DNA of 64,000 nucleotides from Brevibacterium antiquum (GTDB lineage Bacteria; Actinomycetota; Actinomycetes; Actinomycetales; Brevibacteriaceae): the NCBI RefSeq assembly GCF_016107655.1, contig NZ_JABASX010000002.1, positions 186,001 through 250,000 of the forward strand, read 5' to 3'. A program made the translations under genes and the position numbers. The notes below the pieces were generated by a model. The model did no database searches. It was not told where the DNA came from and worked only from the letters and a program-made list of their open reading frames with translations. Below, in pieces: positions 55,353 through 63,708 of this stretch. Numbering within the stretch: the stretch's first letter is position 1; each line of letters starts with the position of its first letter.

Positions 55353-55412
55353 TATTGGCCCAATAATCGACTACTTGTGCGCCCTCCGAATACGACCTGT
55401 GCGCCGTCCGAA
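55353..55412 (+). promoter_or_regulatory. Operator-like repeats upstream of the Wadjet operon
   Basis: TATTGG-c-CCAATA is a perfect inverted repeat (55353-55365). It is followed by two direct copies of a 15-mer, TGTGCGCCCTCCGAA (55376-55390) and TGTGCGCCGTCCGAA (55398-55412), spaced 22 bases start to start, i.e. two helical turns. The arrangement suggests a regulator binding one face of the DNA upstream of jetA (start 55524). No regulator gene is in the operon. Confidence 0.45.
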
Positions 55413-55523: not shown

Positions 55524-56987
55524 ATGTCCGCCCTCAGCTCCGCGCTCGCCTACCGGCGACTGCTCGATGCGAATGCCACCTTGCGCATGCTGCGGGCCGA
55601 CCATCTCCCGGTGATGGCAGCGACACTGGGCACTCACTTGGGCAAGCCCGGCACCCGAATCTCCACCGAAGACCTGCACGAGTCCATCGACTCGGACCTC
55701 GAGGAGCTGCGCGACCACTTCGAGCTGTCCACGCGGACAGCCAAGGCCTACTGCGACGATTGGCGTCGGGCGGAGATCCTCGTCCGCCGACCGGCCACCT
55801 CGGCGAGGGGCGAGACCTACGAACTCTCCGCGGCGGGGTTCGACGCCATCCGAATGCTCGAACAGCTGCGGACTCCACCGCAGACGGCGACCGAATCACG
55901 ACTGGTCAGCCTCGCGCAATCGGTGCGGCAGCTGGCCATCGACACCGACCCGGACAGCTCCCGTCGGTTGGAATCCCTGCGCGCCGAACGAGACCGCATT
56001 GATGCTGAGATCGCCCGCGTCCGCCGAGGAGACCCCCGTTCGATCGTCCTCGACCGGCGCCGGGCGAATGAGCGCGTCGGCGACATCCTCCAACAGGCGC
56101 AGGGTCTTCCCGCCGACTTCGCACGTGTCCGCGCCCGCTTCGAAGAGCTCAATCAGGAACTGCGGATCTCGATCCTCGCCGCCGAGGACTCACAGTCCCA
56201 GGTACTCGACGAGGTCTTCCGCGGAGTCGACCTCATCGAATCCTCTGATGAGGGCAGAACCTTCTCCGCCTTCTCCCAGCTCGTCCGCGATCCCGAGCAG
56301 GCCTCGGCCTTCGACGAAGATATCGCAGCGATCCTCGACCGTGACTTCTCGGCCACGCTGACGGCCGAGACCCGGCGCTCACTGCGCACCCTCATGCGGC
56401 AGATGAAGGACGGCTCACGCGAAGTCTCCGGCATCCTGTCCGAATTCGCCCGCGGTCTGCGCCGCTACGTCCACTCCCACGAATTCCAACGCGACCGCGT
56501 CATGCGCACCCTGATCCAGGATGCCTTGGCCGCGGCAGCCCCGGTCTCACAGGTCCGCAAACCCTACGACAGCCTCGGCGTGGATCTCGAGCTTTCGAGC
56601 GTTGCATTGGCCAGCGTCGGGGAGGTCGTCCTCCACGACCCCAGCGAGTTCGATGCCGGTGCCGAACTGGGCGAGGCGACCGAGACTGAGGTCGACTTCG
56701 CTGAACTCATCGCCGTCGCCCGGGAATCCGAGATCGACTTCTCCGAACTGTCCGACAACGTCAATCGGGCCATCCATGGAGCCGAGCAGATCTCCGTCGC
56801 CGAGGTGCTCGACCAGTTCCCGGCCTCACAGGGCCTGGCAAGCGTCGTCGGGCTCCTGTCCCTGGCCAGCACCTACGGACACGTCGATTCCGAAGCGCGA
56901 GACCGACTCGAATGGGCCGGGGTCGACGGAATTGGGCGCAGCGCCACGATCCGCCGCCATTACTTCACCGAAGGCATCACACTATGA
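55524..56987 (+). CDS. jetA: Wadjet JetA (DUF3375, MukF/MksF-like kleisin)
   Basis: 487-aa kleisin-type subunit of a type I Wadjet system, the SMC-based complex that recognises and cleaves circular plasmid DNA. DUF3375 features are a winged-helix start (ALAYRRLLDANATLRMLRADH), the helical middle rich in Arg/Glu (SLRAERDRIDAEIARVRRGD), a central FSQLVRDPEQASAFDEDI block and the C-terminal winged helix with ISVAEVLDQFP. AGGTGA precedes ATG 55524; the frame is open further upstream but reads as non-coding. It overlaps jetB by ATGA. First gene of jetABCD. Confidence 0.9.
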   Translation: MSALSSALAYRRLLDANATLRMLRADHLPVMAATLGTHLGKPGTRISTEDLHESIDSDLEELRDHFELSTRTAKAYCDDWRRAEILVRRPATSARGETYELSAAGFDAIRMLEQLRTPPQTATESRLVSLAQSVRQLAIDTDPDSSRRLESLRAERDRIDAEIARVRRGDPRSIVLDRRRANERVGDILQQAQGLPADFARVRARFEELNQELRISILAAEDSQSQVLDEVFRGVDLIESSDEGRTFSAFSQLVRDPEQASAFDEDIAAILDRDFSATLTAETRRSLRTLMRQMKDGSREVSGILSEFARGLRRYVHSHEFQRDRVMRTLIQDALAAAAPVSQVRKPYDSLGVDLELSSVALASVGEVVLHDPSEFDAGAELGEATETEVDFAELIAVARESEIDFSELSDNVNRAIHGAEQISVAEVLDQFPASQGLASVVGLLSLASTYGHVDSEARDRLEWAGVDGIGRSATIRRHYFTEGITL

Positions 56988-57718
56988 ACGATTCCGCAGA
57001 CACACCTACCGAGGCTGAAGAGTCCGCCCAGAATCAGGCCGGGCTGTGGTTTCAGGACACAGGGACCTTGGGAGAGCGCACTCGCAGGGTGCTGCTCGAA
57101 CTGCTCAAGGGCCCCTATGTCTCCGGTGCACAGAGTCCGCAGCTGTGGTCGGCTCTGGTCGCCGACGAGTCCATTGTGCGATCACGGCTGCACGACCTGT
57201 TCCTCGAACTCGTCATCGACAAGATCGACGAATTCGCCTTCACCCGCAAGGTGGTCACCGAGGAGATCGACGTGCCTGCAGCGGTGCGCAGCGAACGGCT
57301 GACCTTCCTCGATACGGCCATGCTCCTCGTCCTGCGCCAACTGCTGCTGGCTGCACCCGGCGAGCGGCGTGTGATCGTCGATCGGGAAGAGGTCTACGAA
57401 CGCCTCGCGATCTATCGCACAGGCGACGAATCGACGTTCCAACGCAATCTCAACGGTGCCTGGAGCCGGATGAGCAACCGTCTGCGCGTCCTCCACAAAG
57501 CAGGCGAGGACCGCTTCGAAATCTCGCCGATGGTGAAGTTCCTCATCGACGAGGACCAGGTGCGTGAGCTCATCGACGTCTACGAACGCATCGCTTCGGG
57601 AGAGGCCAAGGGCTCCATCGCTGAGGCGGGGCTCGGCTCCGATGAAGCCGACGATCCCGACGACTCCGATCCTGATTCCGGACTCGGTCCCGACGACACC
57701 GAGGAGGACGAAGCATGA
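56984..57718 (+). CDS. jetB: Wadjet JetB (DUF4194, MukE/MksE-like)
   Basis: 244-aa MukE-like partner subunit. DUF4194 core: TRRVLLELLKGPYVSG (about residues 33-48), FAFTRKVVTEEIDVP, LTFLDTAMLLVLRQLLL (about 106-122) and the C-terminal FEISPMVKFLIDEDQVREL. A 40-residue Asp/Glu-rich tail follows. ATG 56984 lies in the jetA stop and its own stop contains the jetC ATG (both ATGA). Binds JetA and JetC in the complex by analogy with MukE. Confidence 0.9.
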   Translation: MNDSADTPTEAEESAQNQAGLWFQDTGTLGERTRRVLLELLKGPYVSGAQSPQLWSALVADESIVRSRLHDLFLELVIDKIDEFAFTRKVVTEEIDVPAAVRSERLTFLDTAMLLVLRQLLLAAPGERRVIVDREEVYERLAIYRTGDESTFQRNLNGAWSRMSNRLRVLHKAGEDRFEISPMVKFLIDEDQVRELIDVYERIASGEAKGSIAEAGLGSDEADDPDDSDPDSGLGPDDTEEDEA

Positions 57719-60700
57719 CCGAGGCGCTCTTCCCGCTCGATGCCGCACTCATCGCTGACCAGGCCCGCGCCCGCGGCACCGATCGTCCCGACGTCGGCAG
57801 CCAGTGGAGGCTGTCCGAGATCCAGATCGCGAACTGGGGCACCTTCGACTCGGACATCCACCGCATCCCTGTCTCCCACAAGGGTCACCTGATCACCGGG
57901 CCTTCGGGTTCGGGCAAGTCCTCACTGCTCGACGGCATCGCCGCCGTGCTCACTCCGGACAAGTGGCTGCGCTTCAACGTCGCAGCCCAGACCGCGGGCA
58001 GTCGGGTCGATCAGCGCAGTCTCGTCAGCTATGTCCGCGGTGCGTGGACCCGCACTGCGGATTCCGATGAGGACCGTGTCGTGAGCAAATACCTGCGTCC
58101 GCGTGCCACATGGAGCGGCATCATCCTCCGCTACGACAATGGGACGGACCGTCCGCTTTCGCTGGCCAGGCTCTTCTTCATCAAGGGCTCGGGCACGAAG
58201 ATGACCGACCTGTCCGATGTCTGCATCCTCGAACGGGGAGGCCTCGACCTCGCCGACCTGCAGCAGTATGCGCGGTCCGGTCTCGAGACCCGGAAGCTCA
58301 AGACCGAGCATCCTGAAGCGCTCATCACCTCAAACGGTTCCCACGCCAGGTTCTACGCCCGGATGCGCAAGGTCTTCGGTATGGTCAGCGAATCGGCGCT
58401 GCAGCTGCTGCACAAGACCCAATCGGCAAAGAGCCTCGACAGTCTCGACCGCCTCTTCCGCGACCACATGCTCGAACCGCCGGTCACCTTCGACCTGGCA
58501 GAGACCGCGGTCAACCAGTTCGGAGACCTCAGGGACGCCCACGACCATGTGGTCGAACTGCGCCGTCAACGCGACCACCTCCTGCAGCTGCGCGAGGCCT
58601 CGAACCGATACGACTCCGCCCACGAGTCCGCGGCGAAGTCGATCGCCCTCAACGATGCCCTGCTGCCGTTCCAGAAGCGGCGCGAACTCGACCTCATGCG
58701 CTCAGATCTCTCAGCCCAGCGCCGGGGGCTCGTCGAAATCGAAGTCGCTGCCGATCGGGCCAAGAAGGACTATGACGCCGCGGTCGACGAATACGACCTC
58801 GCCCGCCGTGCCACCCTCGACCTCGGCGGTTCGGAGGCCGAACACCTGCAGCAGCGCATCGCCACGGCCGAGACCGAACGTCGCGCCATCGCCGACCGGT
58901 GGGCCAGCCTCGAGCGACAGCTGAAGCAGGCAGACATCGAAGCGGTGCCCACCTCGGCGACTGAATTCGCCGAACTCCAAGCCCAGATCGCGTACACCCT
59001 CGACGACGAGACACAGGCCTCGGGACCCAGCCATGCCGATCACGACCGTTTCTCGAAGGCCCGAGGCAGGGTCAGGGAACTGGAAGCTGAGATCGATTCC
59101 CTGCGTCGTTCCGGTTCGACCGTGCCGGGCAACCTGCTCCAGATCCGACAGGAACTGGCCGAGGGCACCGGACTGAGTGAGAAGGCACTGCCCTTCGCCG
59201 CCGAACTCATCGAAGTCGACCCCGACCAGGCCGCCTGGACCGGGGCGATCGAACGCGTGCTGCGCCCGCTGGCGCTCACGGTCCTCGTGCGCAGCGAGAA
59301 CCTCGGCGCGGTCCGGTCCTGGGTCGACTCCCATCGGATCAAGGGACGACTCGTATTTGAGGAGATCCCCACGCACGCCGCGAAACCACGACCCGTCAAC
59401 AGCACGAAGTCCCTGGTCAACAAGGTTACTGTCGCCGAAACCGGATTCGGGGACTGGGTGCATTCGACCTTGTCCGAACGCTTCGACGTCGCCTGTGTCG
59501 AGCGCCCCGACGAACTCGATGACCATCCCCGTGCTGTGACTATGAAGGGCCAGGTCAAGACCTCCCGGACCCGCTATGAGAAGGATGACCGGCGGCGCAT
59601 CGACGATCGCAGCCAGTGGGTCCTCGGTGACCGGGAGAACAAGCTCGAAGCCCTCATCACCGCTCTGAAAGAAGCCCAGGCGGAACTTGCCGAGGCACAG
59701 GCCATCGTAGAAACCGCGAACGCGGAGACCGCACAGGCCCACCGACGGAAGGGCATCCTCGCCGGAATCCGGGAACAGTCCTGGCGCGACGTCGACCTGG
59801 CCGGAGCCAAGGAGACGATCGCCACCTTGGAGAAGGCGCTGCGCGAACTCGAGGACGCAGACGGTGACCTGCAGCAGGCGATCGGAGCCGAACGCGAAGC
59901 CCGTGCGGCGAAGGAATCCGCCGAGGCTGCCACCCGCGACTGCGACTATGCCCTGCGTCGGGCGAACGAAGAGATCACCGATCTGCGGGCAGGTCTCAGC
60001 CGTCTCGAGGATGACATCAGCGCCGGGCACATCTCCGAGGTGGATCCGACGCTTGCCGAGCAGCTCGAGGCCCGGTTTGCAAAGATCCAGCGCAGCATCA
60101 AGCGCGAATCTCTGCCCGAAATCGGCCAACAGGTCTCCCAAGCTCTGCAGTCGGAGAAAGACAGGGCACAGGCCGTGGCGAGCGAAGCCGGTCAGGCCGT
60201 GACCAGGCTGGCCGCTGAGTTCAAGGCCGCGTGGTCCTCGGTCGCCTCCGATCTCACTGCCGACGTCGCCGATCGACACGACTACCTGGGGATGCTCGAC
60301 GAAATCCTGGCCCACGGTCTGCCCGATCACGAGAACAGATTCCGGGACCTGCTGCGACAGCGCTCCCGCGATCTCATCGGCGAACTCCTCAACGAGATCC
60401 ACGCCGCGCCACGTGAGATCGAGGACCGGGTCGCACCGATCAACTCCTCCCTCCTGCGGTCCCAGTTCGACGAGGGACGATACCTGCGGTTGAAGGTCAA
60501 GACCCGCCGGAGTGAGACCGTCAACGCCTTCATCTCCGATCTCCGCAAGGTCGCCGGAGGCACCTGGGGCGAAGAGGACATGGCGACCGCGGAGGACAAG
60601 TACGACACCCTCGCCGAGGTGATGCGTCGATTCTCCTCAAGCGAGCACGTTGACAAGGTGTGGAAGAACCAATGCCTCGACACTCGACTGCACGTGAGCT

Positions 60701-61182
60701 TCCTGGCCGAGGAGATCGACGACCACGGTCGCGCCCACGCCACCTACGATTCCGGTGCGGCGATGTCCGGCGGTCAGCAGCAGAAGCTCGTAATCTTCTG
60801 CCTTGCAGCAGCACTGCGCTACCAGTTGGCCGATCCGGACGAGGCGATCTCGAAGTACGGCACGATCATCCTGGATGAGGCGTTCGACAAGGCCGACACC
60901 AGGTACACGCGCATGGCGCTCAACATCTTCATCGAGTTCGGATTCCACATGGTCCTGGCCACCCCACAGAAGCTGCTGCAGACCATCGAACCCTATGTCG
61001 GTGCGGCGACCTCGATCGAGAACCCGAGTCGACAGAAGACCCTCGCAGCGACCATGGTCTGGGAGACCGAGAACAGCGAAGAGCCGGGCGGTGAAGCCCA
61101 GGCGGACGAGGCGGCTGCCGTCGCTGACGAGGCGGCTGCCGGCGATGAGGTAGGCGCAGGTGAACCCGACGATGAGAGGTGA
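57715..61182 (+). CDS. jetC: Wadjet JetC (MukB/MksB-like SMC ATPase)
   Basis: 1155-aa SMC-family ATPase, the DNA-loading motor of Wadjet. Walker A GPSGSGKSS is at residues 62-70, the ABC signature MSGGQQQK near 1016-1023 and Walker B TIILDEAFD near 1049-1057. Long coiled-coil stretches surround a hinge region around residues 480-620. Length and order fit MksB/JetC. The last 40 residues are an Ala/Asp/Glu tail with repeated DEAA words. A 19-bp tandem duplication runs through the stop codon, changing the final residue and pushing jetD 19 bases away. Confidence 0.95.
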   Translation: MTEALFPLDAALIADQARARGTDRPDVGSQWRLSEIQIANWGTFDSDIHRIPVSHKGHLITGPSGSGKSSLLDGIAAVLTPDKWLRFNVAAQTAGSRVDQRSLVSYVRGAWTRTADSDEDRVVSKYLRPRATWSGIILRYDNGTDRPLSLARLFFIKGSGTKMTDLSDVCILERGGLDLADLQQYARSGLETRKLKTEHPEALITSNGSHARFYARMRKVFGMVSESALQLLHKTQSAKSLDSLDRLFRDHMLEPPVTFDLAETAVNQFGDLRDAHDHVVELRRQRDHLLQLREASNRYDSAHESAAKSIALNDALLPFQKRRELDLMRSDLSAQRRGLVEIEVAADRAKKDYDAAVDEYDLARRATLDLGGSEAEHLQQRIATAETERRAIADRWASLERQLKQADIEAVPTSATEFAELQAQIAYTLDDETQASGPSHADHDRFSKARGRVRELEAEIDSLRRSGSTVPGNLLQIRQELAEGTGLSEKALPFAAELIEVDPDQAAWTGAIERVLRPLALTVLVRSENLGAVRSWVDSHRIKGRLVFEEIPTHAAKPRPVNSTKSLVNKVTVAETGFGDWVHSTLSERFDVACVERPDELDDHPRAVTMKGQVKTSRTRYEKDDRRRIDDRSQWVLGDRENKLEALITALKEAQAELAEAQAIVETANAETAQAHRRKGILAGIREQSWRDVDLAGAKETIATLEKALRELEDADGDLQQAIGAEREARAAKESAEAATRDCDYALRRANEEITDLRAGLSRLEDDISAGHISEVDPTLAEQLEARFAKIQRSIKRESLPEIGQQVSQALQSEKDRAQAVASEAGQAVTRLAAEFKAAWSSVASDLTADVADRHDYLGMLDEILAHGLPDHENRFRDLLRQRSRDLIGELLNEIHAAPREIEDRVAPINSSLLRSQFDEGRYLRLKVKTRRSETVNAFISDLRKVAGGTWGEEDMATAEDKYDTLAEVMRRFSSSEHVDKVWKNQCLDTRLHVSFLAEEIDDHGRAHATYDSGAAMSGGQQQKLVIFCLAAALRYQLADPDEAISKYGTIILDEAFDKADTRYTRMALNIFIEFGFHMVLATPQKLLQTIEPYVGAATSIENPSRQKTLAATMVWETENSEEPGGEAQADEAAAVADEAAAGDEVGAGEPDDER

Positions 61183-61196
61183 ACCCGACGATGAGA
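61159..61196 (+). repeat. Tandem 19-bp duplication across the jetC stop codon
   Basis: GGTGAACCCGACGATGAGA occurs twice without a gap (61159-61177, 61178-61196). Removing one copy would leave jetC ending in ...DDES-stop with its stop 15 bases before the jetD ATG instead of 34. The duplication thus loosens an ancestral close coupling of jetC and jetD. Confidence 0.85.
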
Positions 61197-61216
61197 GCTG
61201 ACCGGGGGAGGCGACG

Positions 61217-62548
61217 ATGACCATGCTCACCGTCGCCGAGGCGCGGGCGAAAGCGCGTACCCGCCTGCGCTCGTCGATGTCGACCTGGGCCACCCAGACG
61301 GCCTCGAACTGTGTGAGTCCAGACGACGGCGCAGAGGCTGGCCTCGACGTCAGCGTTCCTACCTTCGCAACTGTCGAGATTGCTCTGCATCCGCCCACGG
61401 AGAAGCACGTGCTCGAAGATTAGCAGGCCGCAATGGAATGGGCTGCAAGCTGGCGGAAGATCGCTGCACCCGGTGTCAGTGACTCGAGGTTGGAGAACCT
61501 CAGCAGTCCGGTCATCGACTGGGCCGAACGCTCCTGGGTGCGGGTCGGGCGCCAACGGATCCCACTGCGTCTGCGGTTGCGTACACCGGATGCTGTGGCA
61601 GACTTCGTCGGTGGCGACGAGGCCAGCCAGTGGCGTCGGCTGCGGGATCGGACCGCGACGATCAGGTCACGATTCGACGATCAGCACAGTGCCGCCTCGG
61701 CGATCAAAGCTCATGCGAAACGGATCCTCGGACTTGAACACACCGAGTTCGACACGCTCCTTGACGTCGTCGCCTGGTTGCGCCATCACCCCGTGGGAAC
61801 CCTGCGGCCCCGACAATTGCCGATCCGCGGGGTCGACTCAAAATGGTTCGAAACACACCGCTCCCTGGTCACGGCACTGCTGGAGGCAACTGGGAGACCC
61901 GATGCGGTCGACGTTCTCGACGCTGAACCTCGGATTCGGATGCGCAGCCTCGACCCGGAACTCACACCGTCAGGACTCAGGGACATCAGCGCGCCAGTAA
62001 CTCAGCTCAGCGATCTGGCGATCGCGCCGCGGCTCGTCTTCGTCTTCGAGAATCTCGAATCGGTGCTCGCGATGCCCGATTGGGCCGATGCTGTGGCTGT
62101 GCACGGATCGGGTTACGCGGTGGACAACGTTGCCCGTCTGGCCTGGGTGCACGGAGCGCGAGTCATCTACTGGGGTGACCTTGACTCGCATGGGTTCGCG
62201 ATCCTCTCTCGGCTGCGCAAACACCTGCCGCACGTGGACTCGACGCTCATGGACGAGGCCACTCTCACCGACCACAAGGACCTGTGGGTCCAGGAGCCGA
62301 AACCCCACACAGGAGTGTTCCCGGAGCTGACTGGGACGGAAGCGCGGGCGCTGAACCGCCTGCGTGCCGAGGGCGACGTTCGACTCGAGCAGGAGCGCAT
62401 CCCGTGGGCCACCGCGCTCGCCGCACTGAAAGCAAAGGCCGCCTCGGCGGGGGAGTCTGCAGACGCGTCGAATAAGTCTTCGGCCTCGCCAGGGGAGCCG
62501 ACAACCTCGGCGAGTGAACTCGATGCCCCGCGAGGGGTACAGGGATGA
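61217..62548 (+). pseudogene. jetD: Wadjet jetD (DUF3322/DUF2220 nuclease subunit) interrupted by an in-frame TAG
   Basis: JetD is the Toprim/topoisomerase-VI-like subunit that cuts DNA in Wadjet. The frame starts at ATG 61217 (GGGGAGG upstream) and reads MTMLTVAEARAKARTRL through HPPTEKHVLED, the normal N-terminus, then meets TAG at 61421-61423 (codon 69). The same frame goes on with QAAMEWAASWRKI to the end without other stops. Aligned with the family pattern LED-F-xAV-xxW-xxxWR, the stop replaces one conserved aromatic residue with no indel. Catalytic residues are intact: Glu278 in VFENLES, Asp321 and Asp323 in WGDLDSHG. It is either a nonsense mutant, a sequencing error, or a gene split into two chains. 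Confidence 0.8.
61433..62548 (+). CDS. jetD: JetD downstream reading frame (catalytic part)
   Basis: 371-aa frame from the first ATG after the jetD amber codon, nine bases past the stop. It holds most of the DUF3322 domain and the whole DUF2220/Toprim-like nuclease domain (VFENLESVL, VHGSGYAVDNVARLAWV, YWGDLDSHGFAIL, LMDEATLTDH). It has no ribosome site of its own, but a stop-to-ATG distance of nine bases allows reinitiation by ribosomes that finish the 68-residue upstream piece. The C-terminus after RIPWATALAAL carries an extra 35-residue Ser/Ala-rich tail. It overlaps the MFS gene by ATGA. Confidence 0.6.
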   Translation: MEWAASWRKIAAPGVSDSRLENLSSPVIDWAERSWVRVGRQRIPLRLRLRTPDAVADFVGGDEASQWRRLRDRTATIRSRFDDQHSAASAIKAHAKRILGLEHTEFDTLLDVVAWLRHHPVGTLRPRQLPIRGVDSKWFETHRSLVTALLEATGRPDAVDVLDAEPRIRMRSLDPELTPSGLRDISAPVTQLSDLAIAPRLVFVFENLESVLAMPDWADAVAVHGSGYAVDNVARLAWVHGARVIYWGDLDSHGFAILSRLRKHLPHVDSTLMDEATLTDHKDLWVQEPKPHTGVFPELTGTEARALNRLRAEGDVRLEQERIPWATALAALKAKAASAGESADASNKSSASPGEPTTSASELDAPRGVQG

Positions 62549-63708
62549 CCGACCGGCCTCGCGGAGGGCTGGTCGCCCTCTGCATTGCCGAATTGGCCAG
62601 CTGGGGTCTGCTCTATTACTCGCTGCCAGTGGCGGTGACTCCGATCTCTGCCGATATGGGCTGGAGCCACACCACTGTGACTGCCGCACTGACCTTCGGG
62701 CTCATCGTCTCCGCGCTTGCCGGCGTCCGCGTCGGAAAGCTGCTCGACGCGCACGGGCCCAGAACGCTCATGAGCGTCGGCACGCTCATCGGAATCGTCG
62801 CGCTGCTGCTCGTGGCAGCGGCACCGAATCTCTTCGTCTTCTTCCTCGCGTGGGTGCTGGCTGGATTCGCCCAGGCCGCCACCCTCTATCCGCCGGCCTT
62901 CGCTGTCGTCACCCGCTGGTACGGAGCCGAGCGAACCAAGCCACTGACAACGATCACTCTCGTTGGCGGTCTCGCCTCGACGGTGTTCGCCCCGATCATC
63001 GCCTGGCTCATCGACTCGTGGGGCTGGCGACCGGCCTATGTCATCCTTGCCGGCGTCCTGGCCGTGACAGCTCTGCCGATGCACTGGTTCTTCCTCAACC
63101 GCGGGTGGACCGATGAGATGTCGCGGAATTCGACGGTGCCGTCGCGCGCGGAGATCCGCAGCATCACCCGCTCTCCGACGTTCGTCATCCTCCAGATCGC
63201 CGTCGCGCTGGCGACCTTCACCCTCTTCGCCGTCACGATCAACATCATTCCCCTCATCATCGAGCGTGGAGCCGGGTACTCGCTCGCCGCGATCGCTCTG
63301 GGACTCGTCGGATTTGGACAGGTTTCCGGACGGTTCTTCTATCCGGCGTTTGAACGACGCACGAGCTCACGGGCGCGAACCGTGCTGCTGCTCGGCGCTG
63401 GAGCTATCGGACTGTGGCTGCTCGCCTTCGTGGCCGGACCGATCTGGCTGCTCATCGGCATTGCGATGATCGCCGGTGGTGTCCGGGGATGCATCACGCT
63501 GCTGCAGGCGACTGCCGTGGCCGACCGGTGGGGGACCGCAAACTTCGGGGCGATCAACGGCGTCTTCGTCGCTCCCATCACCGCCGGCACCGCTCTGGCA
63601 CCGGTGGCAGGTCCGGCCCTCGCCGGAGTCGTCGGCGGCTATCCGATGATGGCGATCGTCATGGCCGCGCTCCTGACTGGTGCGACGATGCTGTCGGCGC
63701 GGACGTGA
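62545..63708 (+). CDS. MFS transporter coupled to the Wadjet operon
   Basis: 387-aa major facilitator with about twelve helices: start GGLVALCIAELASWGLLYYSLPVAVTPISADMGWS (key LASWGLLYYSLPVAVTPISAD), loop GKLLDAHGPRTLM after helix 2 and RWYGAERTKPLT before helix 5. The pattern resembles oxalate/monocarboxylate-type MFS proteins. Its ATG lies in the jetD stop codon (ATGA), so it is translated with the defence genes, although transporters are not known Wadjet components. A hairpin 75 bases downstream ends the unit. Confidence 0.85.
   Translation: MTDRPRGGLVALCIAELASWGLLYYSLPVAVTPISADMGWSHTTVTAALTFGLIVSALAGVRVGKLLDAHGPRTLMSVGTLIGIVALLLVAAAPNLFVFFLAWVLAGFAQAATLYPPAFAVVTRWYGAERTKPLTTITLVGGLASTVFAPIIAWLIDSWGWRPAYVILAGVLAVTALPMHWFFLNRGWTDEMSRNSTVPSRAEIRSITRSPTFVILQIAVALATFTLFAVTINIIPLIIERGAGYSLAAIALGLVGFGQVSGRFFYPAFERRTSSRARTVLLLGAGAIGLWLLAFVAGPIWLLIGIAMIAGGVRGCITLLQATAVADRWGTANFGAINGVFVAPITAGTALAPVAGPALAGVVGGYPMMAIVMAALLTGATMLSART

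What the first reader, a model, noticed from the sequence alone, without database searches (positions are those of the whole stretch)
61217..62548. Wadjet nuclease subunit JetD is split by a lone in-frame amber codon
The jetABCD operon is complete, but jetD reads 68 codons, TAG, then 374 more sense codons in the same frame with all visible catalytic residues. The stop falls on a conserved hydrophobic position, not on an indel, and an ATG follows nine bases later. Either the nuclease is inactivated (leaving a JetABC loop extruder that cannot cut), or the two parts are made separately by termination-reinitiation and reassemble, or the codon is read through. A naturally split or switchable JetD would be new.
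Basis: partly seen in the sequence, partly recalled or inferred. Interest (0 to 1): 0.85.

Follow-up and report, generated by a model that had tools for sequence, protein, structure and literature searches.

The report
Nonsense-mutated anti-plasmid nuclease gene jetD
A Brevibacterium strain carries a complete type I Wadjet anti-plasmid operon whose nuclease gene jetD is interrupted by one strain-specific stop codon that all examined relatives lack, which is most simply an ordinary recent loss-of-function mutation and not a new split or switchable nuclease.

Summary
In detail: the jetD frame 61217-62548 holds one TAG (61421-61423, codon 69) followed by 374 open codons with every catalytic residue. 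The operon is a type I Wadjet, present once in a 99.98%-complete Brevibacterium genome. The interpretation as something new is not supported. The closest relative (Brevibacterium sp. 239c, 98% identical JetD) has a Gln codon (CAG) there, all 26 intact Brevibacterium JetD proteins aligned have Gln, and of about 88 JetD N-terminal-domain matches in 396 genomes of the order only this one has a stop inside. The stop is a private C-to-T change, not at a "conserved hydrophobic position". It cuts a confidently predicted domain between two helices; the restart ATG has a weak ribosome-binding site; no CUA-anticodon tRNA was found among 48. The allele also carries I244S at a position that is hydrophobic in all 37 other JetDs aligned. 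The jetC 3' end and jetD lie in a recombination tract apparently imported from a 239c-like donor. Best reading: a recent nonsense (null or severely hypomorphic) jetD allele leaving an intact JetABC. A sequencing error cannot be excluded without reads. Low interest.

The parts
55524..56987 (+). jetA (kleisin-like, DUF3375), intact; the likely start is ATG 55524, inside the mechanical ORF that begins at 55377
   Evidence: Pfam DUF3375 E 1.4e-125 full length; PADLOC JetA1 E 1.3e-182 from ORF residue 50; single copy in the genome, no stops
56984..57718 (+). jetB (KITE-like, DUF4194), intact; start overlaps the jetA stop (ATGA)
   Evidence: Pfam DUF4194 E 4.6e-38; PADLOC JetB1 E 4e-81
57715..61182 (+). 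jetC (SMC-like ATPase), intact; start overlaps the jetB stop (ATGA)
   Evidence: AAA_29 and SbcC_Walker_B in Pfam; PADLOC JetC1 1291.7 bits over residues 25-1123; no internal stops in codon comparison
61160..61197 (+). 19-bp tandem duplication (61160-61178 and 61179-61197) at the jetC 3' end; shifts the jetC stop and lengthens the jetC-jetD gap by 19 bp relative to 239c
   Evidence: Sequence; 19 gap columns in 239c; Tandem Repeats Finder
61217..62548 (+). jetD reading frame interrupted by TAG: nonsense allele of the Wadjet nuclease
   Evidence: Read through: DUF3322 + JetD_C, PADLOC JetD1 E 1.5e-117; intact in relatives
61217..61423 (+). 68-codon N-terminal piece ending in TAG (good ribosome-binding site before ATG 61217)
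   Evidence: carries L57/P60 (invariant) and R10, W24, T61, E62, D68 (nearly invariant)
61421..61423 (+). private in-frame TAG; relatives carry a Gln codon (CAG)
61433..62548 (+). possible restart ORF (371 aa) with most of the CAP-like domain and the whole Toprim domain; weak Shine-Dalgarno
60600..62600 (.). recombination tract (approximate ends; similarity stays raised to about 63600) nearly identical to Brevibacterium sp. 239c, holding the jetC 3' end and all of jetD
   Evidence: Sliding identity about 98-100% to 239c inside, 78-94% upstream; identity to UCMA 11754 falls from 96.5% to 88.1%

Best explanation
jetD of this Brevibacterium strain is a recently arisen nonsense allele of an ordinary type I Wadjet nuclease gene. 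Shown: the strain's jetC 3' end and jetD match a 239c-like allele, and a codon that is CAG (Gln) in the nearest relatives reads TAG. Inferred: translation from the native start ends after 68 residues; if ribosomes restart at ATG 61433 they make a small amount of a protein lacking the first part of the CAP-like domain; the strain therefore has an intact JetABC loop extruder but no, or very little, working JetD, and Wadjet-mediated plasmid cleavage is lost or strongly reduced.
For: The only internal difference of this kind is in this genome: none of the other 29 Brevibacterium JetD loci examined is interrupted (native starts and lengths), and 1 of about 88 DUF3322 matches in 396 order genomes has an internal stop, this one. 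The nearest allele (239c) has CAG; Gln in 26/26 Brevibacterium rows. No CUA anticodon among 48 tRNAs. No second jetD in the genome. The stop falls between predicted helices 62-67 and 69-83 of an ordered domain (pLDDT 91-96), and the lost segment holds invariant residues L57 and P60. Restart site duplex energy -3.3 against -11.0 kcal/mol for the native start. The allele also carries I244S, at a column that is I, V, L or F in all 37 other sequences; dN/dS to 239c is 0.61, against 0.17-0.24 between other jetD pairs. Wadjet null mutations in nature or the laboratory are precedented (M. smegmatis, PMC10586767).
Against: The raised dN/dS rests on a dozen changes and is not significant by itself (P about 0.07-0.16 for the polarised changes at omega 0.2-0.3). 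jetB of the same operon also has a weak Shine-Dalgarno (-3.8) and starts by stop-start overlap, so reinitiation at 61433 is not impossible. One change only separates this gene from an intact one, so a base-calling error remains possible; no reads were available. There are no expression or activity data.
Confidence: 0.85

Rival explanations
1. Assembly or base-calling error: the gene is intact in the living strain.
For: A single substitution is all that separates the gene from an intact one; reads are not available.
Against: The genome is reported as 99.98% complete with 0% contamination in 24 contigs, and jetA, jetB and jetC show no internal stops. Other private changes in the same allele (I244S, S255R, A441V, a synonymous GAA, the 19-bp duplication) show real independent divergence from 239c.
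Confidence: 0.06
2. Termination-reinitiation gives a 371-aa JetD lacking the N-terminal 72 residues that keeps some nuclease function, alone or with the N-terminal piece.
For: An in-frame ATG (M73) lies nine bases after the stop; the Toprim domain and all catalytic residues lie downstream. jetA/jetB and jetB/jetC are coupled by ATGA overlaps, so coupling occurs in this operon.
Against: Weak ribosome-binding site. The missing part holds a confident helix and strand and invariant residues. The break is in a helical region, whereas disordered stretches such as residues 35-46 would be the natural place for a split. No other genome shows a split at this place.
Confidence: 0.07
3. The amber codon is read through, giving full-length JetD at low level.
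For: The frame downstream is open and the residue is Gln in relatives, an amino acid sometimes inserted at amber codons (general knowledge).
Against: No suppressor tRNA with anticodon CUA among 48 tRNAs. The stop is private to one genome, not a conserved recoding site.
Confidence: 0.02

Closest known systems
Type I Wadjet (JetABCD; MksBEFG of Corynebacterium glutamicum, EptABCD of Mycobacterium smegmatis)
   Same: Gene order jetA-B-C-D, all four families matched, Toprim catalytic residues conserved
   Different: jetD has an in-frame TAG at codon 69
JetD of Brevibacterium sp. 239c (NZ_FXZH01000016.1)
   Same: 98% identical protein of the same length and the probable kind of donor of the jetC 3'-jetD tract
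   Different: Sense codon at position 69, I244 kept, no 19-bp duplication
Null mutation in EptABCD (= JetABCD) of the highly transformable laboratory M. smegmatis strain
   Same: Loss of Wadjet function by mutation of one system in one strain, raising plasmid uptake (PMC10586767)
   Different: That strain has a demonstrated phenotype; here the effect is inferred
MksBEF of Pseudomonas aeruginosa
   Same: An SMC complex of JetABC type without a working nuclease subunit, thought to have arisen by loss of JetD (PMC10586767)
   Different: There the nuclease gene is absent and the complex has a chromosome role; here the loss is one recent point mutation and no new role is shown

Membership tests
Type I Wadjet operon | jetA (DUF3375), jetB (DUF4194), jetC (SMC-like ATPase) and jetD in one operon | tested here: met
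   Pfam and PADLOC type-1 models match all four
Type I Wadjet operon | Complete, translatable jetD | tested here: not met
   TAG at codon 69
Type I Wadjet operon | Restriction of circular plasmids in vivo | not testable with these tools
   Needs a transformation assay
JetD / MksG nuclease family | DUF3322 and JetD_C (Toprim) domains with conserved acidic residues | tested here: met
   Read-through frame: DUF3322 E 9.3e-34, JetD_C E 1.2e-48; E278, D321, D323, E391, E393 invariant; matches MksG 8b7f E 4.9e-45
Natural split gene / programmed recoding | Interruption conserved in several lineages | tested here: not met
   1 of about 88 matches in 396 genomes; Gln in 26/26 Brevibacterium rows
Natural split gene / programmed recoding | Own efficient translation start for the second piece, or a suppressor tRNA | tested here: inconclusive
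   Weak Shine-Dalgarno, -3.3 kcal/mol, but close to that of coupled jetB at -3.8; no CUA-anticodon tRNA found
Nonsense pseudogene | Private stop in an otherwise intact frame, intact orthologs, relaxed constraint | tested here: met
   Private stop and intact orthologs shown; relaxed constraint only suggestive

The most novel reading that the evidence does not exclude
The 371-residue restart product, with or without the 68-residue N-terminal piece, is a working or regulated JetD, making this the first naturally split Wadjet nuclease, or JetABC of this strain now works without cleavage as a chromosome or plasmid loop extruder that is kept by selection.
Probability: 0.04. Interest if true: 0.6.

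Novelty: new member of a known kind. Interest (0 to 1): 0.15.

Why it matters
As a nonsense allele it is a natural jetD-minus, JetABC-plus strain that may accept plasmids better than its relatives, of practical use in Brevibacterium genetics. It also shows a jetD exchanged by recombination inside a conserved Wadjet operon. It does not reveal a new mechanism. If a split JetD did work, it would allow the CAP-like and Toprim halves to be studied apart.

Tried and rejected
Conserved split: rejected, no other genome in the order sample has a stop in the domain. The TAG or TGA counts reported at relatives' loci were checked where loci were held: they are terminal stops passed by the alignment (including G030), not internal ones; a few weak or fragmentary matches (G006, G014, G034, G036, G037) were not opened. 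Suppressor tRNA: none among the 48 Rfam matches. Backup jetD copy: none in the genome. Plasmid-borne jetD copy: no match in the plasmid collection. Plasmid replicase PF03090 as a sign of plasmid carriage: no match, but the control genomes also gave none, so uninformative. A literature search for Wadjet pseudogenes returned nothing relevant.

Full report
Observation. The frame 61217-62548 reads 68 codons, TAG at 61421-61423, then 374 sense codons to TGA, without any indel; an in-frame ATG lies at 61433 after nine bases. Upstream jetA, jetB and jetC are intact and match type 1 Wadjet models over their length. The read-through jetD frame matches DUF3322 and JetD_C in Pfam and the JetD1 model in PADLOC, and its closest solved relative is C. 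glutamicum MksG, 8b7f. The genome, a Brevibacterium of 4.25 Mb and 99.98% completeness, has one jetD and one jetA.

Is the stop conserved? No. The nearest allele, Brevibacterium sp. 239c (98% identical protein, same length), has CAG at this codon. All 26 intact Brevibacterium JetD proteins aligned have Gln there, and the 8 nearest genes have CAG. Of 30 Brevibacterium loci read with tblastn only the window's own copy had a stop before the C-terminal end. In 396 genomes of the order, about 88 matches to the JetD N-terminal domain were found and only the window's had an internal stop. The change is one C-to-T transition.

History of the gene. From about 60600 to 62600 the window is about 98-100% identical to 239c, whereas the upstream operon is mostly 78-94% identical to it; conversely the operon upstream is 92-99% identical to UCMA 11754. 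Over fixed stretches the window's identity to UCMA 11754 falls from 96.5% outside to 88.1% inside the tract, while that of 239c stays near 89% in both, so the window lineage looks like the recipient. Within jetD, changes private to the window are one synonymous (GAA), the TAG, I244S, S255R and A441V; the 239c side shows three synonymous changes and T259 (polarised). Column 244 is I, V, L or F in all 37 other aligned proteins and lies in a predicted strand, so I244S is non-conservative; S255R and A441V fall at variable columns. The dN/dS between the two alleles is 0.61 against 0.17-0.24 for other jetD pairs, which suggests relaxed constraint but rests on few changes and is not significant by itself. 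A 19-bp tandem duplication, absent from 239c, also lies at the jetC end and lengthens the gap to jetD.

Could the protein still be made? The native start has a strong Shine-Dalgarno (-11.0 kcal/mol); the ATG at 61433 has a weak one (-3.3), although jetB, coupled by stop-start overlap, is similarly weak (-3.8). None of the 48 tRNAs found has a CUA anticodon. In an AlphaFold2 model of the intact 239c protein (mean pLDDT 85.6) the N-terminal segment forms helix 6-26, strand 53-56 and helix 62-67, and the stop falls at the first residue of helix 69-83; disordered stretches lie elsewhere (35-46 and 420-443; residues 81-90 are also less sure). The lost part includes the invariant L57 and P60 and nearly invariant R10, W24, T61, E62 and D68. 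The residues tied to catalysis in MksG/JetD (PMC10123090) are all downstream and unchanged.

Mechanism. Shown: a private in-frame stop in an otherwise complete operon; intact orthologs; a recombined jetD; no suppressor tRNA found; no second copy. Inferred: JetD is absent or present only as a little N-terminally truncated protein, so JetABC can act but plasmid cleavage is lost or weak. In published work all four subunits are needed to suppress plasmid transformation in B. subtilis, and a transformable M. smegmatis strain carries a null mutation in its JetABCD (PMC10586767).

Verdict. A real sequence feature with an ordinary explanation. The split-nuclease and readthrough readings are possible but without support. 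Reads would be needed to exclude a sequencing error.

Noticed in passing
60600-62600 (raised similarity to about 63600): Recombination tract close to 239c inside an operon otherwise closer to UCMA 11754: the nuclease gene and the jetC tail were exchanged as a block.
   Followed up: partly
61160-61197: 19-bp tandem duplication at the jetC/jetD junction, absent from 239c; moves the jetC stop and lengthens the intergenic gap.
   Followed up: partly
56984-56987 and 57715-57718: jetA/jetB and jetB/jetC overlap by ATGA, so the operon is probably translationally coupled.
   Followed up: no
G014:C26:54256-54417 (genome search): A genus member with only a JetD C-terminal fragment (about 50 residues, E 1.4e-8), possibly the remnant of a lost Wadjet.
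   Followed up: no
genus search: 11 of 57 Brevibacterium genomes have no JetD match at all, so presence of Wadjet varies within the genus.
   Followed up: no
jetD residues 29-50 (61301-61366): Stretch that varies in length among Brevibacterium JetDs, low pLDDT in the model: a linker between the first helix and the rest of the N-terminal domain.
   Followed up: partly
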